DNA from: a virus
Virus record (IMG/VR): IMGVR_UViG_3300030328_003971
Location: 1-20,651 of that record
DNA: 20,651 nt
Strand: one strand, 5' to 3'
The stretch's first letter is position 1; each line of letters begins with the position of its first letter. Positions 443 to 4,432 of the stretch are shown one piece after another. The position numbers and the translations under genes were made by a program. The notes below the pieces were generated by a model. That model saw only the letters and a program-made list of their open reading frames with translations. It ran no database searches and had not been told where the DNA came from.

Positions 443-457
443 GCTATTATTAAAGAG
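442..457 (+). promoter_or_regulatory. Extended -10 promoter for the two-gene unit 480-804
   Basis: TGC-TATTAT (442-450) directly follows the terminator T tract. The next bases, TAAAGAGTCAACCAATC, match the leaders of other genes in this block. The predicted start is near 457, giving a leader of about 23 bases without a Shine-Dalgarno sequence. No -35 is visible. Confidence 0.6.
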
Positions 458-1796: not shown

Positions 1797-2330
1797 ATGA
1801 CCACATCTTATTTTAAAGGCGGAATTCAGAATGGCACCGTAGCAACCGATGCCCGTGCCCGTAAGTTGGACAATTACTGCAAAGAGTTGAGAGAGTCAGT
1901 TTTTTCCAACTTCAAAAGCGAAGAATTGACAGTTCAAAAGAAGTTAAACAAAGATCAAATTCCTGGTGGAATCGGTGCCTGTGAACCTGACGGCGGGGCG
2001 TGGTTTTATAAAGGCATTTTGATTGCAGTCTTTGAGGGTAAGAAACAACAAAACAGAGGGAACGCAATTGAAAGGTGGTTTAAGAATAATTTCATTTGCA
2101 GGTCAATTAATCCACAGGTTTCTTACGTGACCTTTGCCACGGGTGAGGGTGCCAAAGCAGACGGGACAATTGGCAAAGCGTTAAACATTGCCCACTTAAA
2201 CGGATTTAACAAATATGTACCAGGTGGGAATTCCTGCTTTATGAATACAGACACAATTGATAAAGAAGAAATGAATGGCATCATGCACGAAGTAATTCTT
2301 GAAAGAATGGAAGCAGTGGACAATCTGTAA
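1797..2330 (+). CDS. EcoRI-like PD-(D/E)XK endonuclease, compact
   Basis: The 177-residue product carries the signature of the EcoRI restriction enzyme family in the right order: EPDGG (63-67, Asp65), VFEGK (77-82 region, Glu80 and Lys82 as the ExK of the active site), then GNAIER plus KN (88-96), and a SYVTFATGEG strand (109-118). In EcoRI the matching residues are Asp91, Glu111, Lys113 and the GNAIER segment at about 140-145, which contacts GAATTC. The comparison is from memory. The protein is 100 residues shorter than EcoRI: only 8 residues separate Glu80 from GNAIER against about 29 in EcoRI, so the inner DNA-embracing arm is missing, as is much of the C-terminus. No methyltransferase lies beside it. 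It is monocistronic with the best -10 box of the block. Possible roles are attack on host or rival-phage DNA, or mobile-element-like cutting. It may not cut GAATTC. Confidence 0.75.
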   Translation: MTTSYFKGGIQNGTVATDARARKLDNYCKELRESVFSNFKSEELTVQKKLNKDQIPGGIGACEPDGGAWFYKGILIAVFEGKKQQNRGNAIERWFKNNFICRSINPQVSYVTFATGEGAKADGTIGKALNIAHLNGFNKYVPGGNSCFMNTDTIDKEEMNGIMHEVILERMEAVDNL

Positions 2331-2342
2331 ACCTACACACAA

Positions 2343-2363
2343 TTCCCCCTAACGGGGGACTTT
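2343..2363 (+). terminator. Weak terminator-like hairpin
   Basis: CCCCC (2345-2349) pairs with GGGGG (2354-2358) around TAAC. The tail is only CTTTCCCTTTA rather than a clean T run, so termination is probably partial and some transcription may continue from the nuclease gene into the next gene. Confidence 0.5.
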
Positions 2364-2368
2364 CCCTT

Positions 2369-2381
2369 TATAATAAGAATA
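2369..2381 (+). promoter_or_regulatory. -10 box placing the start at the ATG (leaderless)
   Basis: TATAAT (2369-2374) is a consensus -10, and the ATG at 2381 is seven bases downstream, where the transcript should begin. No Shine-Dalgarno sequence is possible in this arrangement. No -35 is visible. Confidence 0.55.
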
Positions 2382-3277
2382 TGAAAAACACCCATCTTGA
2401 GCACCCCGAAGATTGCATCCTCACAGGTAACCTATCTGTATTGGATGCTTTTTTATTGCCCCTTCTTATTACGTTAAAGATTGACGGTGCACCCGCTATC
2501 GTATGGGGCACTAACCCTGAGACGGGGAATTTCTTTGTTGGTACAAAATCCGTATTCAACAAAGTCAAAATCAAAATCAATGAATCACATTCTGACATTG
2601 AGCAAAATCATGATGGGCAAGTGGCGGATATTTTGCATTACTGTCTGGATAACCTGCCTGACCATGACGGAATTATTCAGGGTGACTTTATCGGGTTTGG
2701 CGGTGATGACATATACACCCCAAACACCCTGACCTATTTTTTTGATGAGGATGTAGATGCAGAGATAATTGTTGCCCCTCATACTTCCTATAGTGGGGAC
2801 TGTCTACGGGATGCCATAGCGTCACCCCTTATGGAAAATATGCAAAGCACGGAGACTTGTAAATTTGTTCAACCCCGTTCATTCATTCGTGGTGAGGTTG
2901 AGTGCTTTGATGATTTAGAAGATTCAATCAAGTTCGCAAAGCAAATGTCACAGGCAGTTGATTTTGTAGATGAGAAGGAAGCAAAGAGATTAAAGCAGGT
3001 TTTGAATTCCTGCATAAGGCAGGGCATAGAGATAGACTCTTATGATTTTCCAGGTAATGAGAATCTGATCGGACTCTGGTTACTGGTTAAGTCCATTAAG
3101 GAAGATGCCCTTTCACTCTGCCGTCATGAATCCGATTTTGACACATACTTAGGAGAGAATGAAATTCAGGGTGAGGGATATGTGATGCACACACAGCATG
3201 GCATGTATAAGTTGGTTCAACGTGAGGTCTTCTCATACGCTAATTTTAATAATCAAGGATCATTCCATTCTACATGA
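2381..3277 (+). CDS. Ligase-like nucleotidyltransferase (DUF6267-type)
   Basis: The 298-residue product has the motif set of covalent nucleotidyltransferases (DNA/RNA ligases and capping enzymes): motif I KIDGAP (Lys33 as the predicted AMP-accepting lysine), a GDFIGFG strand resembling motif III in the middle, motif IV EGYV (265-268) and motif V YKLV (Lys277). The N-terminal THLEHPED and the FFVGTKSVF segment match a phage family I recall as DUF6267, common in T4-like cyanophages. No OB-fold domain follows motif V, so it is a bare catalytic core. It lies 50 bases after the EcoRI-like nuclease with its own leaderless -10 box. The reaction is probably adenylylation of an RNA, DNA or protein end; the substrate is unknown. 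The C-terminus may be frame-shifted (see the finding at 3240-3355). Confidence 0.7.
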   Translation: MKNTHLEHPEDCILTGNLSVLDAFLLPLLITLKIDGAPAIVWGTNPETGNFFVGTKSVFNKVKIKINESHSDIEQNHDGQVADILHYCLDNLPDHDGIIQGDFIGFGGDDIYTPNTLTYFFDEDVDAEIIVAPHTSYSGDCLRDAIASPLMENMQSTETCKFVQPRSFIRGEVECFDDLEDSIKFAKQMSQAVDFVDEKEAKRLKQVLNSCIRQGIEIDSYDFPGNENLIGLWLLVKSIKEDALSLCRHESDFDTYLGENEIQGEGYVMHTQHGMYKLVQREVFSYANFNNQGSFHST

Positions 3278-3457: not shown

Positions 3458-3631
3458 ATGCAAAAAAATCCCCAGAATATTTTTAGCACCATAGAGATCG
3501 ATCCAGTAAGTGGTGAGTATCATACAGTAATACCAGAAGAAGTAATAAACGAGATGGGATATTATGAGGACACAAGACTCCATTGGCGGATAGATGGAGG
3601 TGATGTTTACCTTACAGACGAAACAGATTGA
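3458..3631 (+). CDS. Small AbrB/SpoVT-like protein, 57 aa
   Basis: The ORF reads MQKNPQNIFSTIEIDPVSGE and then contains YHTVIPEEVINEMGYYEDT and LHWRIDGGDVYLTDETD. This is the layout of a swapped-hairpin AbrB/MazE-type domain: a strand, a PEE.I.E.G helix, a charged turn and a W.....G..YL strand. Similar 50-60 residue proteins recur in T4-like cyanophages. AAGGAA (3444-3449) sits eight bases before the chosen ATG at 3458. An ATG at 3453 opens another frame that stops after 13 codons, so it is rejected. AbrB-type proteins bind DNA as dimers, so a transcriptional role is possible but not shown. The stop codon is embedded in a consensus -35 box of the next promoter. Confidence 0.75.
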   Translation: MQKNPQNIFSTIEIDPVSGEYHTVIPEEVINEMGYYEDTRLHWRIDGGDVYLTDETD

Positions 3632-3663
3632 CAAGTGATATATAATGGAGTATAATGACTTGA
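3628..3663 (+). promoter_or_regulatory. Perfect sigma-70 consensus promoter
   Basis: TTGACA (3628-3633), a 17-base spacer and TATAAT (3651-3656) match the bacterial housekeeping consensus at all 12 positions with ideal spacing. A second TATAAT lies at 3641-3646. The predicted start is near 3663, 17 bases before the glycosyltransferase ATG. The -35 box overlaps the TGA of the preceding gene. It marks host-polymerase-driven, probably early, transcription. Confidence 0.85.
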
Positions 3664-3679: not shown

Positions 3680-4432
3680 ATGGCAAAAGGATTTACAGTA
3701 AAGGCAACTGCACCAACCGTGAAGAAGCCTGAATGGGATTATGAGAAAGCAAAGGAGTTAGTCAAAGGAAAATCGATAGTCTTCTGTCTACCAGGTAGAG
3801 GAGTATCCTATGCATTTCTGAAATCTTTCGTACAACTTTGTTTTGATCTTGTACAAGCAAATGCAAGTATTCAGATTTCTCAAGATTATTCATCAATGGT
3901 CAACTTTGCCCGTTGTAAGTGTCTTGGAGCAAATGTTCTCAGAGGCCCAGATCAGTTACCATGGGATGGAAAATTAAAGTATGACTATCAACTTTGGATT
4001 GACTCTGATATTGTGTTTAATGCAGAGAAGTTCTGGCAGTTAGTCTTAATGGATCAAGACATAGCAGCAGGATGGTATGCTACAGAGGATGGCAGAACGA
4101 CCTCCGTTGCACATTGGTTAGAGGAAGACGACTTCCGTAACAATGGTGGAGTGATGAATCATGAAACGATTGAAAGTATCTCAAAGAGAAAGAAACCATT
4201 TACTGTTGATTATACAGGATTTGGATGGTTATTGATTAAGAAGGGTGTCTTTGAGCATGAGGGTTTAAAGTATCCATGGTTTGCTCCGAAGATGCAAATA
4301 TTCGAATCAGGGCAAGTACAAGACATGTGTGGAGAAGATGTTTCTTTCTGTCTTGATGCAAAAGATGCAGGTTTCGAAATCTGGTGCGACCCACGGGTAC
4401 GTGTAGGGCATGAAAAAACAAGAGTTATATAA
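3680..4432 (+). CDS. GT-A-fold glycosyltransferase-like protein
   Basis: The 250-residue product looks like a family-2-type glycosyltransferase. Residues 32-37 (SIVFCL) form a first strand, followed by a helix, ISQDYSSMVNFARC (66-79), and the metal/sugar-nucleotide DxD motif in WIDSDIVF (DSD at 108-110). The second half has DYTGFGWLLIKKGVF, a GED acidic motif (218-220) and a terminal GHEK (His244), as expected for the catalytic base and metal-binding His of GT-A enzymes. The first 20 residues are a basic, probably flexible tail. It is the first gene after the perfect sigma-70 promoter and overlaps the next gene by 23 bases. The acceptor is unknown: host surface glycans, virion proteins or modified DNA bases are all possible. 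It could also be a virion-associated member of the fold. Confidence 0.8.
   Translation: MAKGFTVKATAPTVKKPEWDYEKAKELVKGKSIVFCLPGRGVSYAFLKSFVQLCFDLVQANASIQISQDYSSMVNFARCKCLGANVLRGPDQLPWDGKLKYDYQLWIDSDIVFNAEKFWQLVLMDQDIAAGWYATEDGRTTSVAHWLEEDDFRNNGGVMNHETIESISKRKKPFTVDYTGFGWLLIKKGVFEHEGLKYPWFAPKMQIFESGQVQDMCGEDVSFCLDAKDAGFEIWCDPRVRVGHEKTRVI

What the first reader, a model, noticed from the sequence alone, without database searches (positions are those of the whole stretch)
1797..2330. Compact EcoRI-family nuclease in a phage, without a visible methyltransferase
The sequence shows EPDGG, VFEGK and GNAIER plus KN in the order of the EcoRI active site and recognition segment. It is 177 residues against 277 in EcoRI and lacks the inner arm that wraps DNA between ExK and GNAIER. 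A stand-alone phage enzyme of this family would be unusual: it could destroy host or competitor DNA, act as an exclusion factor, or have changed specificity. The family match is from memory and the phage role is inference.
Basis: partly seen in the sequence, partly recalled or inferred. Interest (0 to 1): 0.75.

Follow-up and report, generated by a model that had tools for sequence, protein, structure and literature searches.

The report
Cyanophage AATT restriction enzyme module
This ocean cyanophage gene encodes a trimmed-down relative of the restriction enzyme EcoRI that very probably cuts AATT, and it is normally half of a phage-carried restriction-modification pair, which offers a candidate answer to how these viruses chop up host DNA without destroying their own.

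Summary
The ORF at 1797-2330 (177 aa, PHROG 2400) has no Pfam, NCBIfam or PADLOC match, but its AlphaFold model (pLDDT 87.6) matches EcoRI far above any other fold among the chains compared (Z 15.3; next 9.4). Nearly every residue it shares invariantly with EcoRI is catalytic or AATT-reading. At least 122 viral relatives exist, none found in plasmids or bacterial genomes. It is usually not stand-alone: in 63 of 78 loci with enough flank a D12 adenine methyltransferase follows directly or after one gene, once fused in frame. In the window the methyltransferase is missing from its place between nuclease and DUF6267; the contig is only 23.5 kb. Genome composition gives the target: AATT is the tetramer of 136 that best separates carriers from non-carriers (O/E 0.43 vs 0.88), and two related nuclease phages in which no methyltransferase was found have zero AATT (339 and 233 expected), while their nearest isolate relatives without the nuclease keep it. 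I read it as a phage-borne AATT restriction-modification module, self-protected by methylation or by purging the site. Cleavage is untested. Likely role: host DNA degradation or competitor exclusion; cyanomyoviruses lack T4 denA/denB.

The parts
1797..2330 (+). EcoRI-fold endonuclease, 177 aa (PHROG 2400), predicted AATT-specific
   Evidence: target
1986..1997 (+). P64-D65-G66-G67, equivalent of EcoRI P90-D91-G92-G93 (first catalytic acid)
   Evidence: alignment A5
2034..2048 (+). E80-x-K82-x-Q84, equivalent of EcoRI E111-x-K113-x-Q115
   Evidence: alignment A5; EcoRI roles of Glu111 and Gln115 from titles in the reference list of PMC4081073
2058..2087 (+). G88-N-A-I-E-R93 ... K96-N97, equivalent of EcoRI G140-N141-A142-I143-E144-R145 ... 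K148-N149, the AATT-reading segment
   Evidence: EcoRI roles of N141, A142, R145 from PMC4081073
1735..1775 (+). terminator hairpin of the preceding gene (1735-1754) followed by the A+T-rich element TATAATAAAAGAG (1763-1775) just upstream of the nuclease start: a one-gene cassette
   Evidence: consensus and pattern matches only
2343..2359 (+). terminator-like hairpin after the nuclease; the place where most relatives carry the methyltransferase gene
2381..3277 (+). DUF6267 / PHROG 455 protein, 298 aa, ligase-like nucleotidyltransferase (invariant K33-x-D35-G36); in several relatives the third gene after nuclease and methyltransferase
   Evidence: Pfam; gene order; fold

Best explanation
The gene encodes the restriction half of a phage-borne type II restriction-modification module. 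A compact EcoRI-fold enzyme, presumably a homodimer like EcoRI, reads AATT through the GNAIER segment and cuts it with a PD...ExK centre using D65, E80 and K82. It has lost the EcoRI stretch between ExK and GNAIER, where EcoRI carries its inner arm and residues that read the outer G:C pairs, so it sees four bases instead of six. Self-protection is normally given by a D12-class N6-adenine methyltransferase encoded next door. In one clade it is given instead by complete loss of AATT from the genome. In this phage the methyltransferase is absent from its usual place, and since 170 AATT sites remain in 23.5 kb I predict a copy elsewhere in the unsequenced genome, as in contig G024 where the two genes lie about 18 kb apart. 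During infection the enzyme would cut unmethylated host DNA, and DNA of other phages, leaving phage DNA intact. Shown: gene, conservation, fold, gene pairing, co-divergence, AATT statistics. Inferred: cleavage, methylation of AATT, dimer, infection role.
For: Fold: EcoRI at Z 14.8-15.3 against 9.4 for the next chain. Residues: the only invariant columns across phage family, EcoRI and Paracoccus EcoRI-like are PDGG, E-x-K-x-Q, GNA-x-ER, KN and F113; in EcoRI N141, A142 and R145 contact the AATT core and Ala142 wedges it (PMC4081073). Pairing: of 81 loci, 46 have the methyltransferase within 80 bp 3' and 17 after one gene; in-frame fusion in L059 (Pfam D12 on the fused ORF); nuclease and methyltransferase distances co-vary, Mantel r 0.72, 0 of 2000 permutations. 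Target: carriers with methyltransferase have AATT O/E median 0.43 against 0.88 in 16 non-carriers, rank 1 of 136 tetramers, p 9e-6; G005 0/339, G006 0/281 (same phage), G007 0/233 with no D12 or N6_N4 methyltransferase found, while S-WAM1 (0.91) and S-SZBM1 (0.79), their closest isolates, keep AATT and share only the CCGG loss. Sites flanked by G/C are not singled out. Purifying selection in the window lineage.
Against: No biochemical data. The sequence profiles do not link it to Pfam EcoRI, phmmer/hmmsearch against PDB sequences miss EcoRI, hhalign aligned only 31 C-terminal columns, and Foldseek alone did not rank EcoRI among its best. AATT = 0 without a methyltransferase rests on one clade (two phages, 87% identical), all fragments. 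Total loss of another tetramer (CCGG) in many cyanophages with and without the nuclease shows that something else, presumably host restriction, can do the same. Carriers were not compared with non-carriers on a phylogeny. The window keeps AATT at O/E 0.73 with no methyltransferase in sight, as does the 62-kb fragment G023 (0.66).
Confidence: 0.8

Rival explanations
1. AATT depletion reflects host-encoded AATT restriction, and the phage gene is unrelated to it (for example a nuclease with another target or function).
For: CCGG is completely absent from several cyanophages with and without the nuclease, so total avoidance for other reasons occurs; S-H25 similarly lacks most GATC.
Against: AATT depletion follows the nuclease/methyltransferase module (rank 1 of 136 tetramers); none of 16 non-carriers has O/E under 0.65; the closest isolates of the AATT-free clade share its CCGG loss but not its AATT loss. 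The GNAIER segment predicts AATT independently.
Confidence: 0.12
2. It is an exclusion (superinfection immunity) factor first: it cuts DNA of competing phages that lack the mark, rather than host DNA.
For: Non-carrier cyanophages keep many AATT sites. A virus-encoded modification-dependent restriction enzyme has been reported for archaeal virus HHPV4, in an abstract that speaks of viral systems excluding other viruses (PMC10101028).
Against: In chloroviruses, the closest functional parallel, exclusion was tested and the restriction enzymes were not responsible, while host DNA degradation was attributed to them (PMC7019647). Both roles can coexist.
Confidence: 0.35
3. In this particular phage the nuclease is a decaying or free-standing remnant: the methyltransferase was lost and the enzyme is inactive, not expressed, or selfish like a homing enzyme.
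For: Methyltransferase missing from the expected place next to DUF6267 in the window and in L017; AATT still common (O/E 0.73).
Against: All catalytic and recognition residues kept; dN/dS about 0.11 against the sister; only 4 near-invariant family positions changed, none catalytic. A methyltransferase placed in trans is seen in G024.
Confidence: 0.2
4. It is a PD-ExK nuclease of another family (for example a repair or recombination nuclease) with a chance GNAIER.
For: No sequence-profile match to EcoRI at any threshold.
Against: EcoRI stands about 6 Z units above every other nuclease among the chains compared; all these EcoRI functional motifs are conserved; methyltransferase partner.
Confidence: 0.03

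Closest known systems
EcoRI / RsrI (Pfam PF02963), GAATTC
   Same: Fold (Z 15), PDGG, ExKxQ, GNAIER, KN; adenine methyltransferase partner
   Different: 177 against 277 aa; about 20 residues missing between ExK and GNAIER; four-base AATT rather than GAATTC predicted; D12 methyltransferase instead of EcoRI_methylase; not recognised by the Pfam model
EcoRI-like enzyme plus 'DNA adenine methylase' of Paracoccus marcusii plasmid pCP157_17
   Same: EcoRI-like nuclease (PF02963, E 2.5e-16) paired with a D12 methyltransferase
   Different: methyltransferase upstream, longer nuclease, bacterial plasmid; specificity unknown here
MluCI and other AATT-cutting enzymes (MluCI is named beside EcoRI and MunI in PMC4081073)
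   Same: Predicted AATT target; possible mosaic relation of MluCI to EcoRI and MunI noted in PMC4081073; the AATT specificity of MluCI is from general knowledge
   Different: no sequence was in hand to compare; phage-borne; no relation tested
Chlorovirus restriction-modification systems (for example PBCV-1)
   Same: Virus-encoded nuclease with adjacent methyltransferase, short 2-4 bp targets, proposed early degradation of host DNA (PMC7019647)
   Different: eukaryotic virus, unrelated enzymes; nucleases packaged in virions there, not shown here
T4 denA/denB host-DNA degradation
   Same: Same proposed job of cutting host but not phage DNA
   Different: T4 tells self by modified cytosine (general knowledge); cyanomyoviruses lack denA, ndd and denB (PMC2984593)

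Membership tests
EcoRI fold family (structural sense) | EcoRI-like fold | tested here: met
   VIA Z 15.3, rmsd 2.3 A, 151 aligned; next unrelated chain 9.4
EcoRI fold family (structural sense) | catalytic D...E-x-K and GNA-x-ER recognition segment in order | tested here: met
   Invariant in family and in EcoRI; distances not measured
Pfam PF02963 (EcoRI) | match to the curated model | tested here: not met
   No match up to E 10: not filed as a member of PF02963
EcoRI isoschizomers | GAATTC specificity | tested here: inconclusive
   Composition points to AATT in general, no special loss of GAATTC; no cleavage data
Type II restriction-modification system | methyltransferase genetically linked to the nuclease | tested here: met
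   63 of 78 informative loci, one fusion; not seen in the window fragment
Type II restriction-modification system | methyltransferase modifies the nuclease's target | not testable with these tools
   Needs methylome data; only indirect: AATT kept in carriers where the methyltransferase is found, absent in G005-G007 where none is found
Type IIP restriction enzymes | cleavage at a palindromic site as a dimer | not testable with these tools
   No dimer prediction or assay possible
   Absent in a 23.5-kb fragment only; relatives mostly have one

The most novel reading that the evidence does not exclude
Restriction without modification: in one cyanophage clade (G005/G006/G007) the phage carries an AATT-cutting nuclease with no methyltransferase and protects itself only by having erased every AATT from its genome, so that self and non-self are told apart by base sequence alone, and the enzyme is the missing host-DNA-degrading nuclease of these cyanomyoviruses.
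Probability: 0.45. Interest if true: 0.9.

Novelty: new variant of a known kind. Interest (0 to 1): 0.78.

Why it matters
[quoted passage not shown] A phage-encoded AATT restriction-modification module, present in cultured phages such as S-RIM2, is a concrete candidate, testable with existing isolates. It would be a bacteriophage counterpart of the chlorovirus restriction systems, a trimmed EcoRI-type enzyme (177 aa), and, in one clade, a natural case of self-protection by total site erasure. It would also give a function to a 'hypothetical protein' family (PHROG 2400) and to some 'auxiliary' adenine methylases of cyanophages.

Tried and rejected
Sequence-only links to EcoRI failed: Pfam/NCBIfam/PADLOC scans, phmmer and profile search of PDB sequences, search of the record with the EcoRI model, hhalign of A3 against an EcoRI-family alignment (31 C-terminal columns only); Foldseek on PDB without realignment gave no significant hit. 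The low diversity of the alignment (Neff about 2) and the missing inner arm probably explain this. Bacterial homologues: none in plasmids or GTDB genomes in two scans. A simple rule 'no methyltransferase means no AATT' was considered and dropped: window, L017/L316 and G023 lack a visible methyltransferase but keep AATT; all are fragments. A stand-alone reading of the gene was dropped after the neighbourhood survey. Whether the window phage resembles a complete isolate was tested; no close relative was found (at most 4% of the window covered). Geometry of D65/E80/K82 could not be measured because model coordinates are not exposed.

Full report
WHAT WAS CHECKED. The ORF at 1797-2330 is real, 177 aa, and reads as stated. 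It belongs to PHROG 2400, function unknown (E 3e-81), and has no match in Pfam, NCBIfam or PADLOC. The window is 1-20651 of a 23,465-base virus record; the neighbouring baseplate genes gp25 and gp6 and the Kyanoviridae Gp96 gene place it in a T4-like cyanophage with no close complete relative.

FAMILY. Searches of IMG/VR gave 13, then 49, then at least 122 relatives. Among isolates it occurs in S-RIM2 strains and S-CREM2 (65 records; S-CREM2's copy is annotated 'restriction endonuclease EcoRI'). None was found in plasmids or in GTDB genomes. In 37 aligned members D65, E80, K82, Q84, G88-N-A, E92-R93 and K96-N97 never vary. The window and its sister L017 differ in 13 aligned positions, dN/dS about 0.11.

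FOLD. AlphaFold2 gave pLDDT 87.6 and a helix-strand order that fits a PD-ExK enzyme. Realignment of Foldseek candidates put five EcoRI entries on top at Z 14.8-15.3 (rmsd 2.3-2.4 A, 151-153 residues, 21-22% identity); the next chain, Can2, scored 9.4, and other restriction enzymes about 6 to 8. An alignment of phage members, EcoRI itself (retrieved as a plasmid gene) and a Paracoccus EcoRI-like enzyme leaves only P-D-G-G, E-x-K-x-Q, G-N-A-x-E-R, K-N and F113 invariant. In EcoRI, Arg145, Asn141 and Ala142 contact the AATT core and Ala142 wedges it (PMC4081073); titles in that paper's reference list call Gln115 critical for the inner thymidine and Glu111, Glu144 and Arg145 essential. What is missing from the phage enzyme is the stretch between ExK and GNAIER, where EcoRI carries its inner arm and the residues before G140 that, from general knowledge, touch the outer G:C pairs. 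This predicts a four-base AATT reader before any genome is looked at.

PARTNER. S-RIM2 has a DNA methyltransferase two genes downstream, S-CREM2 a DNA adenine methylase about 0.9 kb downstream. Of 81 loci, 46 have a D12-class methyltransferase (PF02086) within 80 bp of the nuclease's 3' end, 17 have it after one gene, 1 on the 5' side, 14 have none within at least 1.8 kb, and 3 are too short. In L059 the two are one reading frame. Nuclease and methyltransferase distances co-vary (45 pairs, Mantel r 0.72, 0 of 2000 permutations). The 14 exceptions fall into three groups: window plus L017; L038-L040; and a clade with SCAPDGG. In that last clade the 190-kb contig G024 carries a methyltransferase of the same subfamily (56% identical to S-RIM2's) about 18 kb from the nuclease. 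In several loci a DUF6267 gene follows the methyltransferase (for example L023: nuclease ORF ending at about 933, methyltransferase 933-1784, DUF6267 from 1838). The window has nuclease then DUF6267 after 50 bp, so the methyltransferase is missing exactly from between them. No D12 or N6_N4 methyltransferase is in the record.

TARGET FROM GENOME COMPOSITION. AATT was counted against a second-order Markov expectation. Carriers in which no methyltransferase was found: G005 0 of 339, G006 0 of 281, G007 0 of 233; G005 and G006 are the same phage (99.98%), G007 is 87% identical. Carriers with methyltransferase: 0.08-0.86, median 0.43 over 16. Sixteen cyanomyoviruses without the nuclease: 0.65-0.98, median 0.88. 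Of 136 tetramers AATT separates the two groups best (p 9e-6; the next 5e-4, with a median change of only 0.06). S-WAM1 and S-SZBM1, the closest isolates to G005, have AATT at 0.91 and 0.79 but share its complete lack of CCGG. That comparison is the control that matters: CCGG loss is independent of the nuclease, AATT loss goes with it. Flanking bases of the remaining AATT sites are much the same in carriers and non-carriers, and GAATTC is not lost more than other AATT contexts, as expected for a four-base reader. Loci with the methyltransferase subfamily but another upstream gene are also depleted in AATT in most cases.

THE WINDOW ITSELF. It has 170 AATT sites where 234 are expected (0.73), including 9 GAATTC, and a nuclease under purifying selection. 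If the enzyme is active the phage must be protected. I infer a methyltransferase outside the 23.5-kb fragment, as in G024. The 62-kb fragment G023, also nuclease plus DUF6267 without methyltransferase and AATT 0.66, is in the same position. Loss of activity or host-supplied methylation cannot be excluded.

HOW IT MOST LIKELY WORKS. The enzyme cuts AATT in unmarked DNA; phage DNA carries the mark or, in one clade, lacks the site. Host DNA degradation is the role I favour, because cyanomyoviruses lack denA, ndd and denB and the route was called undescribed (PMC2984593), and because chlorovirus restriction enzymes are held responsible for host DNA degradation while they were not responsible for exclusion (PMC7019647). 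Exclusion of competing phages remains possible. The neighbouring gene, DUF6267, has a ligase-like nucleotidyltransferase fold: all of the 50 listed chains are RNA or DNA ligases (best Z 9.3) and K33-x-D35-G36 is invariant. The same review reports that cyanomyoviruses lack the T4 g30 ligase, so this is a lead worth following; its role with the nuclease is unknown.

NOVELTY. Phage- or virus-borne restriction-modification is known in kind. What is new here, as far as the searches went, is the trimmed EcoRI-type branch, its AATT target, its spread through cyanophages, its methyltransferase partner, and the erased-site clade. A search for papers joining cyanophage, AATT and avoidance found none; the S-CREM2 paper discusses the methylase but does not mention EcoRI, and a review of cyanophage methylases does not contain the words restriction or endonuclease. 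Only open-access papers were searched.

LIMITS. No activity was measured; active-site distances were not measured; composition tests were not corrected for phylogeny; non-carriers were sampled at 40-100 kb each, and many carriers are fragments.

Noticed in passing
window 2381-3277: DUF6267/PHROG 455 is predicted to be a ligase-like covalent nucleotidyltransferase (invariant KxDG; all 50 listed structural neighbours are RNA/DNA ligases). Cyanomyoviruses are reported to lack the T4 g30 DNA ligase.
   Followed up: partly
G005, G006, G007, G023, G024, S-RIM2, S-WAM1, S-SZBM1, S-SSM7, window: CCGG is completely absent (0 of up to 154 expected) from many cyanophages whether or not they carry the nuclease, presumably because of host restriction; GATC is nearly lost in S-H25.
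   Followed up: partly
L090, L094, L095, L097, L101, L106-L108, L111, L114-L117, L119, L120-L122, L125-L129: The same methyltransferase subfamily sits behind other uncharacterised genes: a 'RGIxGHVAADRF' protein, DGQHT/DUF6551 (ParB-like) proteins, a very divergent ADGG...AENK...NAVER protein (L111 3399-3911) and a 175-aa ExK protein. The partner nuclease may be swapped while AATT depletion persists (L119: 1 AATT in 12.8 kb, 69 expected).
   Followed up: partly
window 445-457, 1335-1347, 1763-1775: TATTATTAAAGAG / TATAATAAAAGAG element upstream of several small genes, each followed by its own C-rich/G-rich terminator hairpin: a chain of one-gene cassettes, probably with early promoters (0 of 100 shuffles reach 4 matches).
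   Followed up: partly
window 3628-3656: Perfect sigma-70-type site TTGACA-17-TATAAT upstream of the PHROG 1574 gene (weak match to glycosyltransferases) at 3680.
   Followed up: no
L059 1887-3296: In-frame fusion of nuclease and methyltransferase in a single ORF; a single metagenome contig, so a sequencing error in the stop region is not excluded.
   Followed up: partly
L056 3726-4310; S-RIM2 131.8 kb; G001 91 kb; G012 53.6 kb; G024 40.7 kb: A second, distant D12 methyltransferase (21-27% identical) is present in several carrier phages; specificity unknown.
   Followed up: no
L016 5311-7920: S-CREM2 gene annotated as Cas9-like virion nuclease directly upstream of its EcoRI-like gene.
   Followed up: no
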